In this document: positions 1-7,164 of the stretch, in pieces
How the letters are laid out: each line of letters opens with the position of its first letter
How positions within the stretch are numbered: position 1 is the first letter of the stretch
Source of the DNA: Gemmatimonadota bacterium
GTDB lineage: Bacteria; Latescibacterota; UBA2968; UBA8231
DNA: 9,073 bases
Reading direction: 5' to 3'
NCBI GenBank assembly: GCA_002712305.1
Contig: PATE01000013.1
Location: 1 to 9,073, forward strand
Program-made: the position numbers and the translations under genes
The notes under the pieces: generated by a model
The model's input: only the letters and a program-made list of their open reading frames with translations
Told to the model about the DNA's origin: nothing
The model's database searches: none

Positions 1-1154
1 ACCGTTTCATCAGCGTCACCCTCTGTCCCCTGACAGGAACGCCCCAGGTCTTTGACGCGACCGACGAAGACGGGTTTCAGATCGAGTTCGGCGTCTCCGG
101 ATTGCTCATCAACAGCAATCTTGTGATGTACGACCGTCGTGATGAGGTCACCCTCTATCCGCAGATGATCTATACTGCCATCAACGGCGAAAACGAGGGC
201 GATCGACTCACCTTGTTGCCCGTCGTACACACGACCTTCGGGCGGTGGAAGCAGCTTCATCCAGATACACAGGTCGCCGAGTTTGGTTCGGGTCTCGATC
301 GCTACAGTTCGCGTCTACAGGATGCCTTTAAGAATCTCAGCATCTACGAGTATCCCTACGGCAACTACCGAACGAACAACAGCTATCTGATCTTCCCGTG
401 GACGACGAGTGAACCAGATCTGAGCCGTCACAATACGAAGGATCTGGTCCTCGGTGTCTGTATGGGCGATCTGCTGCGTGCCTATCCCTTCAGCGAGATG
501 GGCAGGCAGGCCGTCATCAACGATGAAATCGACGGAAACTCGATACTGGTCGTTTACGAGCGTGGTACATCGATTCCTTACTCGCGTGACGTGAATGGCC
601 AGACGCTGACCTTTTTCGAGGTCGAAGGCGCCGGCGATCTGCCGGTCTGGTTTGAGGATGTGGAGACCCGCAGTCTCTGGAGCATGGCCGGCGTCGCTGT
701 CGACGGCCCCCTGCAGGGCGAGCGCCTCGAACAGATTCCTTCCTACAACAGCATGTGGTTCGCCTGGCACACGTACTGGCCGCAGACGACCCTGTGGAAT
801 GGGGAGGGAATCCTCGACGAGCTGCCCCCCATCACGGCGATTCTCGAGCCGGTGACTGACGCGATGCCCGGTGATTTCGTCCTGGACCAGAACCATCCCA
901 ATCCCTTCAATCCGTCGACGCGGATTCGTTTCGATCTGCCCCACGACGGCGAGATCCATCTGGCCATCTACAACACCATGGGCCAGCGAATTCGGCGCCT
1001 CGCCGACGGATTCCACCGGGCCGGTGTCTACGAGTTGACCTGGGATGGAGGAGATGGCTCGGGTCGAGCGGTCGCCAGCGGTGCCTACATCTACCGCCTC
1101 GAGTCGGCCGAACTGGGCCTGGTGGCGAGTCGCCAACTGGTTTTGGCCCGCTGA
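1..1154 (+). CDS. DUF3179-family protein with C-terminal type IX/FlgD-like sorting module (5' end missing)
   Basis: The reading frame is open from base 3 at the window edge, so the true start lies upstream; the TTG at 102 is internal. Seen: an LCPLTG motif (about 27-44), then FGVSGLLINSNLVMYDR (about 90-137), then HPDT near 256-270 and a second block with LGVCMGDLLRAYPF (about 450-491). These are the landmarks I know from DUF3179 (usual forms YCPLTG, FGVSG-L-NS-LVMYDR, HPDT, GV-ARAYP). The function of that family is unknown. From about 885 an NHPNPFNPSTRIRFDLP segment opens a roughly 85-residue beta-rich tail ending in SRQLVLAR, the FlgD-like/type IX C-terminal domain that usually directs secretion or surface anchoring. 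Inference: an exported or surface protein. No enzymatic activity can be assigned. The gene ends just before a strong terminator, so it closes its transcription unit. Family call is confident; role is not. Confidence 0.82.
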   Translation, partial: RFISVTLCPLTGTPQVFDATDEDGFQIEFGVSGLLINSNLVMYDRRDEVTLYPQMIYTAINGENEGDRLTLLPVVHTTFGRWKQLHPDTQVAEFGSGLDRYSSRLQDAFKNLSIYEYPYGNYRTNNSYLIFPWTTSEPDLSRHNTKDLVLGVCMGDLLRAYPFSEMGRQAVINDEIDGNSILVVYERGTSIPYSRDVNGQTLTFFEVEGAGDLPVWFEDVETRSLWSMAGVAVDGPLQGERLEQIPSYNSMWFAWHTYWPQTTLWNGEGILDELPPITAILEPVTDAMPGDFVLDQNHPNPFNPSTRIRFDLPHDGEIHLAIYNTMGQRIRRLADGFHRAGVYELTWDGGDGSGRAVASGAYIYRLESAELGLVASRQLVLAR

Positions 1155-1262: not shown

Positions 1263-3656
1263 ATGTCGCTGAGCTCCCGATACAGTCGCTGGCTGCATCT
1301 GCGTTGGCCCGCTGGGACCGTCGAACGGTTGCCCGAAGTGGGCCCGAACTATCGCAGCAATGTGCCAGGGCTCTACATCGTGGGGGATCTCACCGGTGTG
1401 CCACTGCTGAAGTTTTCGGCCCACAGCGGCTCGATGGCGATCAAGGACATCATCGCCGATTCGAGTTTCCAGCGACAGCGTGGTTCTAAGGTGACGGGTG
1501 ACACACCCGCTGCCCCTTCCGGTCAACAGCTGGATGTGGTCATCATCGGCGCCGGTGTCTCGGGAATGTCGGCGGCGCTGGCTGCACGCGAGGCAAACCT
1601 TCGTTTTGCCTTGCTCGAAGCGACCGAACCCTTCTCCACGGTGGTCAATTTCCCCAAGGGAAAACCGATCTACACCTATCCGACCGAGATGGTGCCTTCC
1701 GGGCAGCTCCAGTTCAATGCGAACGTCAAGGAGCCTCTCGTCGCCGATCTCAAGGCACAGACTCTCGATGCCGGGATCGAGCCGACCATGGTTCACGCCG
1801 AACGGGTCGAACGGCGTGGAGATCATTTCGAGATCGTCATTCCCGATGGCGAGAATCTGCAGGCTCTGCGCGTGGTGGTGGGCATCGGTCGTTCCGGAAA
1901 CTTTCGCAAGCTGGGTGTGCCCGGCGAAGATTTCGACAAGGTGTCGAATCGGCTGCACGATCCTCAGGAGTTTTCGGACAAGGACGTGCTCGTCGTTGGC
2001 GGTGGCGACAGCGCCATGGAAACGGCCATCGCCGTGGCCTGTGCCGGGGGGCGGGTCACGCTGTCCTATCGCAAGCCCGAATTCTCCCGACCGAAACCGG
2101 AGAATGTGGAACGCCTGGAGGCGCTGCGGATTGACCCCATGGCGGATGTGGAGGTGGACAACCCGACTTCAGAACGAGTCACCACGTCGGCGGGCGCCTT
2201 CCTCGAGGGTGGGCGACAGGCGGGTTCGGTGAACCTGATGATGCCATCTCAGGTGAAACAGATCGGCGATGCAGAGGTGGTGATCACCAACGCCGACGGC
2301 GCCGAGGTGACCGTGCCGAACGACACGGTCTTCACGATGATCGGTCGTGAGGCGCCCCTGGAATTCTTCCGCCGCAGTGGGGTGCACATCCAGGGAGAGA
2401 TGACGCCGCGCAACTGGGCCGGTCTGGTGTTGTTCGTTGCCCTGTGCACGTTCATCTACCACTGGAAGTCCGGCGGGGCGCTGACGATGCTGTTCAAGGA
2501 GAATCACTGGTTCCCGTTCAATATCCCAGACCTGCTCACCGGTCTCAGCGTTACAGCAGCAGATCCGTCGACGCTGCTGGGCATCCTCAACTTCAATCTG
2601 GGCAAGCCCGGGTTTTACTACAGCTGCGCGTACTGTGCGCTGGTGGCCGTCTTTGGCTGGCGCCGAGTTCGGCTGCGTCAGACACCCTACGTGAAGTGGC
2701 AGACGGCGAGTCTGGCGGCATTTCAGATCGTGCCTCTGTTTCTGCTTCCCTACATCGTACTGCCTCTGATGGGCCTCAATGGCTGGTTTGACACCGGCTT
2801 CGGCAAGAGCTTCGCCGACACCTTCCTGCCTCAGGTGGACTACGATCTGGGGCGTGAATACTGGCGTGCTTTCGGTTTTGTGCTGGCGTGGCCTCTGTTC
2901 GTCTGGAACGTGTTCACCCACGAGCCGCTGTGGGGATGGCTCGCCGTGAGTCTCGTGCAGACCTTCGTCATTCTGCCGCTGATCATCTATCGGTGGGGGA
3001 AGGGTGCGTACTGTGGGTGGATCTGCTCATGTGGAGCCCTAGCCGAAACCCTCGGGGACGGCCACCGTCACAAGATGGTGCATGGCCCGAGCTCCAATCG
3101 CTGGAATCTTCTCGGTCAGGTGATCCTGGCCATCTGCCTGGTTCTGCTACTGACGAGGATCATCGCCTGGGCCTGGCCCCACAGCGGTTTCGGCGTCAGC
3201 GTACGGGGAATCCACGAGGGGCTGCTGTATGGCTGGCAACCCTTCGGCGTTCCCTTCAACTATGCCTACGTCGTAGATCTACTCCTGGCCGGTGTCGTCG
3301 GTTACGGGGTCTATTTCTGGTACAGCGGTCGCGTGTGGTGTCGCTTCGCTTGTCCGCTGGCGGCGCTCATGCACATCTACGCTCGCTTCAGCCGCTTTCG
3401 TATTCTGCCAGAGAAGAAGAAGTGTATCTCCTGCAATGTGTGTACATCGGTTTGTCATCAGGGGATCGATGTGATGAACTTCGCCAACAAAGGGCTGCCC
3501 ATGGCGGACCCTGAATGTGTACGTTGCAGTGCGTGTGTCGGCGCATGCCCGACAGGGGTGTTGGAGTTTGGTCAGGTCGATCCGGCAACGGGTAAAGTGC
3601 TGCAAACAGACAGTTTACCCGCCTCAACCGTTCGTCAGTCAGAGATGAGCGCATGA
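1263..3656 (+). CDS. Fusion of an NAD(P)H-dependent flavoprotein with a NapH/NosR-like membrane iron-sulfur module
   Basis: 797 residues. Residues 34-50 (VPGLYIVGDLTG region, G41-D42) match the motif that normally ends thioredoxin-reductase-like folds. Next comes an FAD dinucleotide-binding GAGVSG at 96-101 with acidic E119, an NAD(P)H-binding GGGDSA at 246-251, and FTMIGREAPL near 357-366. From about 385 there are roughly seven membrane spans. Between and after them lie CGWICSCGAL (C584, C588, C590) and CRFACPL (C693, C697), the paired Cys motifs of NapH/NosR/FixG proteins. The C-terminus carries two ferredoxin-like sets: C721/C724/C727/C731 and C752/C755/C758/C762. Inferred role: electron transfer from NAD(P)H via FAD into membrane-bound [4Fe-4S] clusters; acceptor unknown. 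The N-terminus is conserved-looking from the ATG, which supports this start despite a weak ribosome site. The barrel-protein gene follows 31 nt after the stop. Domain calls are strong; physiological role is open. Confidence 0.88.
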   Translation: MSLSSRYSRWLHLRWPAGTVERLPEVGPNYRSNVPGLYIVGDLTGVPLLKFSAHSGSMAIKDIIADSSFQRQRGSKVTGDTPAAPSGQQLDVVIIGAGVSGMSAALAAREANLRFALLEATEPFSTVVNFPKGKPIYTYPTEMVPSGQLQFNANVKEPLVADLKAQTLDAGIEPTMVHAERVERRGDHFEIVIPDGENLQALRVVVGIGRSGNFRKLGVPGEDFDKVSNRLHDPQEFSDKDVLVVGGGDSAMETAIAVACAGGRVTLSYRKPEFSRPKPENVERLEALRIDPMADVEVDNPTSERVTTSAGAFLEGGRQAGSVNLMMPSQVKQIGDAEVVITNADGAEVTVPNDTVFTMIGREAPLEFFRRSGVHIQGEMTPRNWAGLVLFVALCTFIYHWKSGGALTMLFKENHWFPFNIPDLLTGLSVTAADPSTLLGILNFNLGKPGFYYSCAYCALVAVFGWRRVRLRQTPYVKWQTASLAAFQIVPLFLLPYIVLPLMGLNGWFDTGFGKSFADTFLPQVDYDLGREYWRAFGFVLAWPLFVWNVFTHEPLWGWLAVSLVQTFVILPLIIYRWGKGAYCGWICSCGALAETLGDGHRHKMVHGPSSNRWNLLGQVILAICLVLLLTRIIAWAWPHSGFGVSVRGIHEGLLYGWQPFGVPFNYAYVVDLLLAGVVGYGVYFWYSGRVWCRFACPLAALMHIYARFSRFRILPEKKKCISCNVCTSVCHQGIDVMNFANKGLPMADPECVRCSACVGACPTGVLEFGQVDPATGKVLQTDSLPASTVRQSEMSA

Positions 3657-3676: not shown

Positions 3677-3687
3677 GGATGTTATCG

Positions 3688-5166
3688 ATGAGACGCGTTA
3701 CGGGTTGGTCGCGCTACGTAGGATGGATGTTGACCCTGATGCTGCTGATGCCGGCAGCGCCGGGTGTCGCCCAGGATTCAACGGTCGAGACGTTGAAAGA
3801 GCTGCAGGAATTGCGCAAGGAAGTCGAGCGCCGACGCAACGAAATGCGGCGTGAACTGATGCTCCTGCGCCAGGTGTTGGGTGAAGAGGTGGAGCCAGAG
3901 TTCGAAGGCGGCTTCGGTTCTCTCGGCGGGATGACACCAGACGAACTGGGTGCCGAATTGCGAATTCTGCGCGAGGAGATCGAACGCCTGCGCGACAAGA
4001 TCACACTGGAGCAACTCGAGGCACGGCAGGAGCGGTTTGACATCACTGGCATCGTGCGCTCACGACTGGAATGGTCCGACATCGATTTCGTCAGTGGTGA
4101 CGCTGATGTGCGCCAACTCATGCGCTCGCGCATCAAACTCACCGGTCGACCGCGCCACGACACGCGCGTCATCGTGGAGATTCAGGACGGCCGTGCGTGG
4201 GGTTCAGAGTCCGGCCTCGATCCGACCTTCGATGCAGACGCCGATCACATCGATTTCCATCAGGCCTATATCGAGTTGCAGGAGATCTACGGCAAGCAGT
4301 TGACCATGCGACTCGGCCGCCAGGAACTGGCCTATGGCAGCGGTCACCTGTTGGGTTCAGCCGCCTGGGGGAATGCGGGACGCGCCTTTGACGGGCTCGT
4401 TTTCCGCTATGGCGAGAAGTCCTTCGTGGATCTGTTCGTCGCCAAAATCGCCGAGCAGGGCGTAACGGATGAAAACCTGTTCGGCCTGTACGTCGATGCG
4501 CGTCTCAACGATGGTCACCGTGCCGAACCGTATGTGTTTCTCGAGCATGACAAGACCCTCGGCGTCGAGCGGCTCCTACGTGCGACGGGCGGTCTGCGGA
4601 TCTACGGCTCGGCCACGGGAGAGACGGGGCACATCTTTGGCTATGAACTAGAGGGGATCGGTCAAGCGGGTGAGGTCGGCGACGACGACGTCCTGTCCTA
4701 CATGGGGTCGGCCACCTTCCGTTATCGGGGTCCTTCCTGGACCCAACCGGAAGTACGCCTCGGGCTCGATTTTCTGTCAGGCGATGATGCACCCCTTGAC
4801 GGTGATCGCGAAGCCTTCGACACGATGTATCCTGCGTGGCATACGTTCTTCGGCCTCATGGACCTGTTCCGGGACATGCCCGAAGATACCGGCAATGGGG
4901 GGCTGCTAGACTTCAGGGTACAAGGGGAGATGTCGGCATCGGAGAGTGTGCGTGTAGGGCTGCACGTGCATCACTTTACGCTGGCCAAAGGGGTCGAGAA
5001 GGGGCTGGGACAGGAGGCGGACGCGATCGTCACGTATCGCTACAACGCGGCGACGACGCTGCACTGGGGCGGTATGATCTTCGTCCCCAGTGACGCGATG
5101 AAGCTCAGTCGTGGTGGCGAGGATCCGGCCTTCAAGACGTTCATGCAGTTGGAGGTGCGGTTCTAG
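3688..5166 (+). CDS. Outer-membrane beta-barrel protein with N-terminal coiled coil (alginate-export/porin-like)
   Basis: The frame is also open from ATG 3679, but I prefer ATG 3688: TGAGGA at 3674-3679 sits 8 nt before it, whereas it would abut and overlap the 3679 start. From 3688 the product is 492 residues. Seen: a signal peptide (two Arg, hydrophobic core at about 10-24, likely cleavage after A28 in GVAQD); two charged heptad-like segments at about 33-67 and 80-115 predicting coiled coils; then alternating amphipathic strands with motifs such as RSRIKLTGRP, DFHQAYIEL, LGRQELAYGSGHLLG and AFDGLVFRYG; and a terminal Phe (QLEVRF), typical of barrel insertion. These motifs resemble the alginate-export (AlgE-like) family, in which many members have no link to alginate. 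It is probably co-transcribed with the upstream redox fusion. The substrate is unknown; porin-like is certain enough, alginate is not implied. Confidence 0.78.
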   Translation: MRRVTGWSRYVGWMLTLMLLMPAAPGVAQDSTVETLKELQELRKEVERRRNEMRRELMLLRQVLGEEVEPEFEGGFGSLGGMTPDELGAELRILREEIERLRDKITLEQLEARQERFDITGIVRSRLEWSDIDFVSGDADVRQLMRSRIKLTGRPRHDTRVIVEIQDGRAWGSESGLDPTFDADADHIDFHQAYIELQEIYGKQLTMRLGRQELAYGSGHLLGSAAWGNAGRAFDGLVFRYGEKSFVDLFVAKIAEQGVTDENLFGLYVDARLNDGHRAEPYVFLEHDKTLGVERLLRATGGLRIYGSATGETGHIFGYELEGIGQAGEVGDDDVLSYMGSATFRYRGPSWTQPEVRLGLDFLSGDDAPLDGDREAFDTMYPAWHTFFGLMDLFRDMPEDTGNGGLLDFRVQGEMSASESVRVGLHVHHFTLAKGVEKGLGQEADAIVTYRYNAATTLHWGGMIFVPSDAMKLSRGGEDPAFKTFMQLEVRF

Positions 5167-5172
5167 GCGGCT

Positions 5173-5505
5173 CTACTCGGCGTCGAGTGCATCGACGCTG
5201 TCGGAATCTGACTCGTCGTCTGTCTGCTTGGGGGAGCTGGCCTCCGGCACTGGTGGTTTGGAGACAGCGCTATCGGCAGGAGCCGCCTCGTCACCCTTGC
5301 CCTCCTACGTGCTGGCGACACGCTGGCGTACGGCAGGTTCAAGCACTTGTGTCAATTCCACGAGGTCTTCGACGGTGATCTCCACCTGCTCGAGCATTCC
5401 CTCTGGCAAGAAGGGCGCCAGCTCTTCGGTACTGGCCTGGGCTGGTTCCGTCGCAGCGGTCGCGTCACCAGATTTGTCAGATTCATGCGCTCGCGCTCGG
5501 GGATC
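5173..5505 (-). pseudogene. Out-of-frame, amber-interrupted C-terminal remnant of the response regulator
   Basis: Reading the minus strand in the other phase from 5505 gives a coherent hydrophilic sequence (for example EPAQASTEELAPFLPEGM, then VEDLVELTQVLEP) to a TAG at 5305-5307. The same phase continues for 43 further codons with an acidic tail ending in DSDSVDALDAE and TAG at 5173-5175, 6 nt from the convergent barrel-protein stop. The span 5173-6254 is 1082 nt, one base short of 361 codons, so a single lost base would restore the frame. Inference: the ancestral protein was about 360 residues and now carries one frameshift (between about 5465 and 5505) and one nonsense change. Assembly error could explain one of these; both together make real decay more likely. 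Confidence 0.6.
5178..5200. other. Hairpin in the convergent junction
   Basis: GCGTCGA (5180-5186) and TCGACGC (5192-5198) form a perfect 7-bp stem with a 5-nt loop, extendable by a G-U and a C-G pair to 9 bp. It begins 11 nt after the barrel-protein stop and lies in the residual acidic-tail codons of the minus-strand regulator. There is no T-tract on either side, so it is not a classical terminator. It may slow or protect transcripts from both sides, or be incidental. Confidence 0.3.
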
Positions 5506-6254
5506 TCACCCCGCTCATCGACGATGAGTGCGACGTTCAGATCGCTGCGCTTGTTGATGGATGCCAGTCGCGCCAGAGTCACACCGCCCCCATGCACCTT
5601 CGTCGACAACACCATCAATTTGACTCGCTGTCCGATGACGCGGAGCAAACGGCTGATTTCACCGGAGTCATGGTCGATGACGACACCGAACAAGGGCGGG
5701 TCGGCGTCGGCATTCAGATGTTTCACCGAAGTGGCGACATCGGCCAGTGTGTGTAGCGTTTCCAGATGTTCGGGCCGCAGCAGGTGGCTCGGGACACTCG
5801 TGGAATCGCCGATCACCATGAGTGGATAGTTATCCTCAGGCCGCATCGGATCTTTGGCCTCTGCCACCTGTCTGGCGAGAATCTCGGCGTGTCGGTTCAA
5901 GATGAGGTCGATGCGCTGCTTCACCTGCGGTGGCGTGAAGGGTTTGGCCAGATAACCGTTGACCCCGATCTTGAAGGCGGTCACGAGATCTTTGCGTGAG
6001 GCGCGGGTCGTGAACATCAAGATGGGCAGCCGGGCATACTCCACCCGCTCGCGAACCTGTCGTATTAACTCGAGCCCATTCAAAACGGGCATGTTCCAGT
6101 TGGTGATCAACAGATCGACGACTCGAGCGTCCATCAACTCGAGGGCCTCTTTGCCGTTGGTCGCCATCATCAGGTCGTCGTAGTCAAAATCCGTGAGCAT
6201 GCGAGCGACGATTTTTCGCATGCCTTCGGCGTCTTCGACGAGCAGGATCCGCAA
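5352..6254 (-). CDS. Response-regulator-like protein with Asn at the phosphoacceptor site and a frameshifted C-terminus
   Basis: Start chosen at TTG 6254, giving RILLVEDAEGMRKIVARML, the normal beginning of a receiver domain. The frame stays open to an ATG at 6458, but that would add 68 uncharacteristic residues and overlap the divergent hydrolase gene. From 6254 the product is 300 residues. Receiver domain 1-120: acidic pair E7/D8, Thr at 82-83, Lys104 in LAKPF. The phosphoacceptor position, normally Asp in a T-D-W-N-M-P context, is N52 (codon AAC, 6099-6101). Residues of about 130-248 show strand-like stretches (PLMVIGDS, FGVVIDHDS, VKLMVLST, NVALIVDE) suggesting a second, degenerate receiver-like fold. 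There is no DNA-binding or enzymatic output domain. After about residue 256 the sequence turns Arg/Ser/Pro-rich and looks out of frame. Phosphorylation-independent signalling or decay are both possible. Confidence 0.75.
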   Translation of the reverse strand: MRILLVEDAEGMRKIVARMLTDFDYDDLMMATNGKEALELMDARVVDLLITNWNMPVLNGLELIRQVRERVEYARLPILMFTTRASRKDLVTAFKIGVNGYLAKPFTPPQVKQRIDLILNRHAEILARQVAEAKDPMRPEDNYPLMVIGDSTSVPSHLLRPEHLETLHTLADVATSVKHLNADADPPLFGVVIDHDSGEISRLLRVIGQRVKLMVLSTKVHGGGVTLARLASINKRSDLNVALIVDERGEIPERERMNLTNLVTRPLRRNQPRPVPKSWRPSCQRECSSRWRSPSKTSWN

Positions 6255-6291
6255 CTGGGTTTCGTCCGGGTAATGGAGAAAGGGTCTGTCA

Positions 6292-6300
6292 GAAGATAGC
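6292..6300 (-). promoter_or_regulatory. Possible -10-like element ahead of the response regulator
   Basis: GCTATCTTC on the minus strand (TATCTT at 6293-6298) ends 37 nt before the TTG start, matching the placement of the same 9-mer upstream of the flavoprotein operon. The -35 region (CTGTCG with a 17-nt spacer) matches poorly. The 145-nt divergent gap 6255-6399 also holds an imperfect inverted repeat (6301-6310 with 6331-6343) of unknown meaning. Confidence 0.3.
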
Positions 6301-6384
6301 GATGGCAGCGCCCACCGACAGCATGGTTGACGCTGATGCCATCCCGCAGTTTGGTTGTTGCCTTCCCGCTCACCCCCGCAGATC

Positions 6385-6389
6385 AGGAG
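6385..6389 (+). promoter_or_regulatory. Shine-Dalgarno site of the metallo-hydrolase gene
   Basis: AGGAG lies 10 nt before ATG 6400. The frame is open further upstream to 6355, but this site and the family-typical beginning VKVTFLGHASF fix the start at 6400. Confidence 0.75.
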
Positions 6390-6399
6390 TGCCCACACC

Positions 6400-7164
6400 A
6401 TGGCATCAGTGAAAGTTACATTCTTGGGACACGCTTCCTTCCGTTTTGAGTCGGACAAGGGAACGGTGATCTACTTCGACCCATGGCTCGATGAGAATCC
6501 GACGGCCAAGTCCAAGGTCTCGCAGATTCGCAAGGCCGATATCGTGATCGCCTCACACGGTCACCACGATCATTGTGCCGACGCCTTCGCCATCTGCAAG
6601 AAGACGAAGGCGAAGTTCGTCAGCGGCTATGAGATGTGCGTCGTCGCTGAGGCCCATGGACTCAAGCTGGGCAGTCGCGCCGTGCCCCTGAACCCTGGTG
6701 GCTCACTGAAGGTGAAGGACGTGACCCTGACGATGACCCAGGCCGTGCATTCGGTGTCCCTGTCGCCCAGTCTCGGTGCGGCGCCGGAAGGGGGCCATTT
6801 TCATCCGGATGGCTCCGTTAGCGGGTATGTACTGGCTTTCGACAATGGCATCACGATCTACGACAGCGCCGACACCTGCCTGTTCTCGGACATGCAGTTG
6901 ATCAGCCAGATGCACGGCCCGCAGATCGCCATCCTACCCGTAGGAGGGAAGTACACCATGGGCGTGCGTGAGGCGGCGCGGGCGGCGAGTCTGATTCGCC
7001 CAGAGATCGTGATTCCCGCCCACTACGGAACCACCATGGGTCAGCCCGCCGATATCGGTGAACTGAAGCGCGGCGTGAAGTTCCTGTCGGCCAACACTCG
7101 CGTCGAGGAGCTGAAGGTGGGCAAGACGCTGACCTACACGGCGAGCCAGAGCAAGGTCAGTTGA
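6400..7164 (+). CDS. Metallo-beta-lactamase-fold metal-dependent hydrolase, UPF0173-like
   Basis: 254 residues, slightly longer than the roughly 225-230 usual for UPF0173. Seen: an opening VKVTFLGHASFRF strand; DPWLDENP at 27-34; the metal-binding motif SHGHHDH with H53, H55, D57 and H58; H117 in QAVHS; D158 in the SADT motif; LPVGGKYTMG at 179-188; and H208 in PAHYGT. All canonical dinuclear metal ligands are present, so it should be catalytically competent. There is no signal peptide, so it is probably cytoplasmic. The physiological substrate of UPF0173 proteins is not established. A GGHFHPDG insertion near 131-138 adds two His residues ahead of the second half of the sheet. It is transcribed divergently from the response regulator and separated from the efflux operon by a promoter-like region. 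No obvious partner gene is nearby. Confidence 0.88.
   Translation: MASVKVTFLGHASFRFESDKGTVIYFDPWLDENPTAKSKVSQIRKADIVIASHGHHDHCADAFAICKKTKAKFVSGYEMCVVAEAHGLKLGSRAVPLNPGGSLKVKDVTLTMTQAVHSVSLSPSLGAAPEGGHFHPDGSVSGYVLAFDNGITIYDSADTCLFSDMQLISQMHGPQIAILPVGGKYTMGVREAARAASLIRPEIVIPAHYGTTMGQPADIGELKRGVKFLSANTRVEELKVGKTLTYTASQSKVS

What the first reader, a model, noticed from the sequence alone, without database searches (positions are those of the whole stretch)
1263..2460. Flavoprotein fold appears circularly permuted, with the FAD-closing motif at the N-terminus
In thioredoxin-reductase-like proteins the order is GxGxxG (FAD), then GxGxxA/G (NADPH), then a VPGLYAxGD-type motif that completes the FAD site at the C-terminus. 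Here the VPGLYIVGD motif comes first (residues 34-42), followed by GAGVSG (96) and GGGDSA (246). The chain then enters the membrane right after the IGREAPL strand, with no second GD motif. The N-terminal segment therefore looks like the displaced C-terminal cap of the same fold.
Basis: partly seen in the sequence, partly recalled or inferred. Interest (0 to 1): 0.72.

Follow-up and report, generated by a model that had tools for sequence, protein, structure and literature searches.

The report
Circularly permuted thioredoxin-reductase-like membrane flavoprotein
This bacterial membrane enzyme, predicted to pass electrons from NADPH through a flavin to iron-sulfur centres, has its flavin domain re-cut so that the normal tail end comes first, and this rearrangement is kept in relatives from about a dozen phyla.

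Summary
The finding holds. ORF 1263-3656 (797 aa) carries the piece that normally ends a thioredoxin-reductase-like flavoprotein (VPGLYIVGD, residues 34-42) in front of the FAD motif (96) and the NAD(P)H motif (246). Against a profile of its nearest normal-order relatives, residues 91-379 match positions 3-265 and residues 19-61 match 266-308: the two pieces tile exactly, in swapped order. The predicted structure matches solved thioredoxin reductases only up to the cut, and the cap strand must pair with the FAD sheet. Cap-to-core couplings rank 2nd, 5th, 9th and 14th of 47,008 residue pairs among 228 permuted sequences. Of 390 ORFs examined, 267 have the cap first, 107 last, none both, and none has two flavoprotein copies, so a fused-enzyme remnant is unlikely. 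Permuted modules occur in about a dozen phyla with several ferredoxin, membrane and cytochrome partners. The module lacks the thioredoxin reductase CxxC and the YpdA cysteine. Most likely it is a membrane NAD(P)H dehydrogenase delivering electrons via FAD and [4Fe-4S] clusters to a membrane or periplasmic acceptor; this function is inferred. I found no published description of the permutation in the open-access library searched. New variant of a known fold.

The parts
1263..3656 (+). Whole gene: cap, FAD/NAD(P)H core, NapH/NosR-like membrane domain, two [4Fe-4S] (797 aa)
1305..1490 (+). Displaced C-terminal cap, residues 15-76 (strand 37-41, helix 49-65)
1362..1388 (+). VPGLYIVGD, FAD-closing motif, residues 34-42
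   Evidence: G41 266/266; D or E at 42 266/266
1491..1526 (+). Low-confidence linker joining cap to FAD domain, residues 77-88
   Evidence: AF2 pLDDT under 50 at 78-86; GD to GxGxxG distance median 44 in all architectures
1527..1958 (+). First half of FAD domain, residues 89-232, GAGVSG at 1548-1565
1959..2297 (+). NAD(P)H domain, residues 233-345, GGGDSA at 1998-2015, R270/R276
2298..2402 (+). Returning FAD-domain segment, residues 346-380; normal-order proteins continue here into the cap
2403..3395 (+). Membrane domain, NapH/NosR-like, with YCGWICSCG (C584, C588, C590) and WCRFACP (C693, C697)
3414..3563 (+). Double [4Fe-4S] ferredoxin, residues 718-767
   Evidence: Fer4 Pfam matches, invariant Cys
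3679..5166 (+). Alginate_exp-type outer-membrane porin 22 bp downstream; possible partner, seen in the same place only in the nearest relative (L003)

Best explanation
Residues 15-380 form one thioredoxin-reductase-like (two dinucleotide-binding domain) flavoprotein module whose chain has been circularly permuted: the C-terminal FAD-closing cap (strand, GD motif, helix) now precedes the FAD domain, and the old joint between the last FAD strand and the cap is the new exit into the membrane domain. In the folded protein the cap still packs on the FAD domain in the usual place. The permutation is a stable trait of a large, apparently undescribed family found with several electron-transfer partners. 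Most likely function (inferred): NAD(P)H reduces FAD in the cytosol; FAD passes electrons to the C-terminal double [4Fe-4S] domain and the NapH/NosR-like membrane part, which delivers them to quinone or an extracytosolic carrier. Moving the cap to the front frees the end of the FAD domain to be joined directly to a membrane or ferredoxin partner. Shown: the order, its conservation, homology of this cap to the normal cap, tiling, and coevolution of cap with core. Inferred: FAD and NAD(P)H binding, direction of electron flow, acceptor, and evolutionary advantage.
For: Tiling of 91-379 = profile 3-265 and 19-61 = profile 266-308 of normal-order relatives; in ferredoxin-first members in-silico rotation restores one full-length match (L113 168.8 to 203.8 bits, L114 187.8 to 229.8; shuffled-cap maxima 173.5 and 191.6). 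Shuffle test. Order conserved in 76 homologs, 46-85% identical over the flavoprotein part. 267 N-cap, 107 C-cap, 0 both; no double cores. AF2 models with the cap strand at pLDDT about 94-95 and no partner strand of its own. PDB alignments end where the cap would begin. Cap-core couplings I60-V92, L37-V374, V40-V205, N33-H375, consistent with helix 49-65 packing on strand 90-95 and helix 99-110, and strand 37-41 beside strand 199-208. GD to GxGxxG spacing median 44 in every architecture. Electron-transfer role: fusion to ferredoxin, membrane and multihaem cytochrome partners; R270, R276 and K278 invariant in the 77-sequence alignment.
Against: No coordinates, so contact distances were not measured. 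The coevolution set is small (about 184 effective sequences); a normal-order control set (about 96) gave only weak agreement of cap-core couplings (0.25 of the top 20 against 0.09 in rolled nulls, 133 of 5000 as high). A reduced-alphabet full-length run gave only moderate preference of the cap for the FAD domain (11 of 20 against 5.5 expected). Whether the cap closes its own or a neighbouring chain's site is not settled. No functional data; gene neighbours are not conserved.
Confidence: 0.88

Rival explanations
1. The N-terminal piece is the leftover end of a second, upstream flavoprotein that was fused and then lost; it does not belong to the fold that follows.
For: A duplication-and-trimming history would leave just such a piece, and is a standard route to permutation (established knowledge).
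Against: None of 390 ORFs has two cores or caps at both ends. The cap is among the most conserved parts (Y7, W10, L11, H12, P16, G41, D42, G45 invariant) and couples to the following core. No second cap exists to close the core's FAD site.
Confidence: 0.04
2. Permuted and also domain-swapped: the cap closes the FAD site of the partner subunit in a dimer.
For: Thioredoxin reductases are dimers (established knowledge); coevolution cannot tell contacts within a chain from those between chains; AF2 confidence in the linker is low.
Against: AF2 monomer models place the cap strand in the core's own sheet, and the spacing from GD to GxGxxG is short and uniform (minimum 38, median 44).
Confidence: 0.08
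3. The module is a thiol-disulfide reductase (bacillithiol or thioredoxin reductase type) anchored in the membrane.
For: The best named model is YpdA (TIGR04018, 115 bits) and the best structure hits are Bdr/YpdA and TrxR.
Against: No CxxC in the core of 259 of 267 permuted proteins and no YpdA-type GxGxCG cysteine in any; NCBIfam cut-offs missed by a wide margin; constant fusion to [4Fe-4S] domains instead.
Confidence: 0.05

Closest known systems
YpdA/Bdr bacillithiol disulfide reductase and thioredoxin reductase (PF13738, PF07992)
   Same: Same two-dinucleotide-domain fold over residues 85-378 (VIA Z 19.8 with 7a7b, rmsd 9.1 over 261; Z 18.9 with 2q7v, rmsd 3.9 over 248); same FAD and NAD(P)H motifs.
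   Different: Order of segments permuted; no redox cysteines; fused to membrane and ferredoxin domains.
Normal-order flavoprotein with two cNMP-binding-like domains and [4Fe-4S] (L135-L142 type, Pseudomonadota and others)
   Same: Most similar cap (ESNVPGLYIIGALAGYPLIKQAMNQGYEVIEYI) and core; also joined to [4Fe-4S].
   Different: FAD-NAD(P)H-cap order; additional cNMP-type domains (named from sequence inspection, not run against Pfam); mostly GA instead of GD/GE in the cap.
Bacterial ferredoxin:NADP reductases of the YumC/FNR type
   Same: Thioredoxin-reductase fold without CxxC, exchanging electrons between NADPH and iron-sulfur proteins (established knowledge; structural hits 3lzw, 6gar, 3ab1).
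   Different: Soluble, normal order, separate ferredoxin.
NapH/NosR/MauN membrane iron-sulfur proteins
   Same: Membrane part and C-terminal double [4Fe-4S] match NapH/MauN (60.7 bits) and NosR (24.5 bits).
   Different: Below the family cut-offs; carries its own NAD(P)H/FAD module, which NapH and NosR do not have.

Membership tests
Thioredoxin-reductase-like two dinucleotide-binding domain flavoproteins | GxGxxG FAD motif, GxGxxA NAD(P)H motif, GD-type cap motif | tested here: met
Thioredoxin-reductase-like two dinucleotide-binding domain flavoproteins | Fold matches solved members | tested here: met
   residues 85-378, Z up to 19.8; the part up to the cap only
Thioredoxin-reductase-like two dinucleotide-binding domain flavoproteins | Linear order FAD - NAD(P)H - cap | tested here: not met
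   cap first
Circular permutation of that fold | Segments tile the normal-order profile in rotated order | tested here: met
Circular permutation of that fold | Moved segment packs at its usual place | tested here: inconclusive
   supported by DSSP reasoning and coevolution; no coordinates to measure
Thioredoxin reductase (TIGR01292) | Score above curated cut-off | tested here: not met
   70.5 bits against 343.45
Thioredoxin reductase (TIGR01292) | Redox-active CxxC in the NADPH domain | tested here: not met
   no CxxC in the window's core; no Cys among invariant columns of 1-385
YpdA/Bdr (TIGR04018) | Score above cut-off; Cys in GGGPCG | tested here: not met
   115 against 339.9 bits; GAGVSG here, GGGPCG in 7a76, GxGxCG in 0 of 267 permuted
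NapH/MauN (TIGR02163) | Score above curated cut-off | tested here: not met
   60.7 against 213.05
NAD(P)H dehydrogenase (function) | NAD(P)H oxidation coupled to [4Fe-4S] or quinone reduction | not testable with these tools
   needs purified protein

The most novel reading that the evidence does not exclude
An undescribed, widespread family of single-chain membrane NAD(P)H dehydrogenases (NAD(P)H to FAD to [4Fe-4S] to membrane or periplasmic acceptor), built on a naturally circularly permuted thioredoxin-reductase fold that was re-used with at least three different sets of electron-transfer partners, including multihaem cytochromes.
Probability: 0.5. Interest if true: 0.78.

Novelty: new variant of a known kind. 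Interest (0 to 1): 0.64.

Why it matters
A natural circular permutation of one of the commonest redox folds, fixed across about a dozen phyla and joined to several electron-transfer partners, seems undescribed. It shows how moving a cap can create a new fusion point, explains why profile libraries see only part of these proteins, and points to an unstudied set of putative membrane NAD(P)H dehydrogenases in Planctomycetota, Acidobacteriota, Latescibacterota and others. Permuted and unpermuted relatives with nearly the same cap make the origin and cost of permutation testable.

Tried and rejected
Fused second enzyme remnant: rejected (no double cores, no double caps). Disulfide reductase: disfavoured rather than excluded (no cysteines). 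Single origin: neither shown nor rejected; the core tree needs two changes because the multihaem forms L205/L206 sit with the normal-order cNMP group, but holding all permuted rows together costs only 2.56 log-likelihood units (AU p 0.349). Gene neighbourhood as a guide to function: DUF547, family 2 glycosyltransferase, radical SAM and other genes recur in a few loci only; no conserved operon. Whole-profile rotation of the window itself did not merge into one match, because HMMER split it at the extra residues; the tile positions were used instead. Control coevolution on normal-order proteins was too shallow to be decisive. A first full-length coevolution run was killed by the sandbox's limits. 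Structural matches of 725-732 to cap positions in the full-length model were not interpreted. Literature: nine searches of the open-access library gave no description of this permutation; the one permuted flavoprotein case read was an FMN-bind domain, unrelated (PMC11334425). Subscription papers and preprints were not searched.

Full report
Observation. The window holds one 797-residue ORF at 1263-3656 on the plus strand. Pfam and NCBIfam see a pyridine-nucleotide flavoprotein only from 91 to 379, then a NapH/NosR-like membrane part and a double [4Fe-4S] domain. Residues 1-89 alone match nothing in Pfam and only weakly the C-terminal GD region of lipoamide dehydrogenase-type models. phmmer against PDB sequences shows the same split: TrxR and YpdA match from residue 88-90 on, while 23-66 match the C-terminal part of dihydrolipoamide dehydrogenases.

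Conservation. A scan of GTDB genomes returned 80 loci; 76 are full length over the flavoprotein and all keep the order. Record titles name Gemmatimonadota, Latescibacterota, Calditrichota, Planctomycetota, Deltaproteobacteria/Myxococcota, Dadabacteria, Acidobacteriota, Verrucomicrobiota, Omnitrophota, Eisenbacteria, Zixiibacteriota and Pseudomonadota; most are metagenome bins, so single placements may be wrong. In 77 aligned sequences Y7, W10, L11, H12, P16, G41, D42, G45, P47, L48 and L49 are invariant, so the N-terminal piece is among the most conserved parts.

Other permuted families. Genome searches brought in divergent relatives. Type A is the window's. Type B (for example L116, L117, and L019:1006-3372 lying just upstream of a type A gene) has the same layout with GD or GE. 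Type C (L113-L115, L132-L134, L189, L195-L203) is hydrophobic helix - two [4Fe-4S] - cap - FAD - NAD(P)H and ends at the point where a normal protein would go on into its cap. L205/L206 add a multihaem cytochrome c in front. L118 has lost the NAD(P)H domain but kept cap and FAD. Among 390 ORFs, 267 have the cap before the core, 107 after, 16 undetected, none both, and none has two cores. The spacing from the GD motif to GxGxxG is similar (minimum 38, median 44) in all architectures.

Permutation test by profile. The nearest normal-order relatives are FAD - NAD(P)H - cap proteins with cNMP-binding-like and [4Fe-4S] domains (L135-L142, L144, L152). With a profile of their flavoprotein part (319 positions), the window gives 91-379 = positions 3-265 and 19-61 = positions 266-308, a perfect tile in swapped order. 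For type C proteins, rotating the sequence in silico restores one full-length match with a gain of 35-42 bits, while shuffled caps give at most about 6 bits. The cap alone scores 33.2 bits against the normal-order cap profile; 2000 shuffles reach 6.7; 77 of 77 homologous caps beat all 1540 shuffles.

Structure. AF2 of residues 1-385 (77 sequences, pLDDT 83.6, pTM 0.72) and of the full protein (pLDDT 84.2, pTM 0.74) give a cap strand at 37-41 or 37-39 and helix 49-65, pLDDT about 94-95. No other strand of three or more residues exists in 1-89, so the partner of that strand must lie in the core. Solved thioredoxin reductases and YpdA match the model from about 85 to 378 and stop some 50 residues before their own C-terminus, just before their cap.

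Coevolution. Mean-field direct coupling on 228 unique permuted sequences (effective 184) ranks cap-core pairs 2nd (I60-V92), 5th (L37-V374), 9th (V40-V205) and 14th (N33-H375) of 47,008 pairs; further pairs K61-A107, S55-S103, I60-A104, I60-V205 and D66-R203 fit a cap helix lying on the first FAD strand and helix and a cap strand beside strand 199-208. V374 and H375 end the core where normal proteins run on into the cap, so the two sides of the old joint still touch. Eighteen of the top 20 cap-core pairs fall in the FAD domain (P 0.02). In a coarser full-length run the cap prefers the FAD domain over membrane and ferredoxin (11 of 20 against 5.5 expected, P 0.009). A control on normal-order proteins was too shallow.

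Evolution. On a core-only tree permuted rows need two changes, but a single clade is not rejected (AU p 0.349). One or two origins remain open. No duplicated intermediate was seen.

Function (inferred). The core lacks CxxC and the YpdA cysteine, so thiol chemistry is unlikely. R270, R276 and K278 are invariant among type A, at the place where thioredoxin reductase holds the NADPH phosphate (established knowledge), which suggests NADPH. The constant partners are [4Fe-4S] domains, a NapH/NosR-like membrane part with conserved Cys motifs, or a multihaem cytochrome. The simplest reading is an NAD(P)H dehydrogenase feeding a membrane or periplasmic acceptor. Neighbouring genes are not conserved and give no further clue.

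Verdict. It is a new, widespread variant (circular permutation) of a well-known fold; I found no description of it in the open-access literature searched.

Noticed in passing
L118:2332-3033 (-): A permuted relative that has lost its whole NAD(P)H domain but keeps cap, FAD domain, membrane part and [4Fe-4S]; it may take electrons from elsewhere.
   Followed up: partly
L205, L206, L301: Permuted flavoprotein fused behind a multihaem cytochrome c, a membrane helix and two [4Fe-4S]: a one-chain path between NAD(P)H and periplasmic haems.
   Followed up: partly
L135-L142, L144, L152, L207-L209, L302-L331: Normal-order family FAD-NAD(P)H-cap with cNMP-binding-like domains and [4Fe-4S]: a possibly cyclic-nucleotide-gated redox protein, mostly with GA instead of GD in the cap.
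   Followed up: partly
L019:1006-3372 and 4065-6449: Type B and type A permuted proteins encoded side by side in one planctomycete contig.
   Followed up: no
window 3679-5166: Alginate_exp-type outer-membrane porin with an N-terminal coiled-coil-like stretch, 22 bp downstream; same arrangement in L003.
   Followed up: partly
window 102-1154: DUF3179 protein with a C-terminal FlgD-like/secretion-sorting type domain (NHPNPFNPSTRIRF).
   Followed up: no
window 5352-6458 (-) and 6355-7164 (+): Response regulator and a metallo-beta-lactamase-superfamily hydrolase called as overlapping divergent ORFs; the true starts are probably further in.
   Followed up: no
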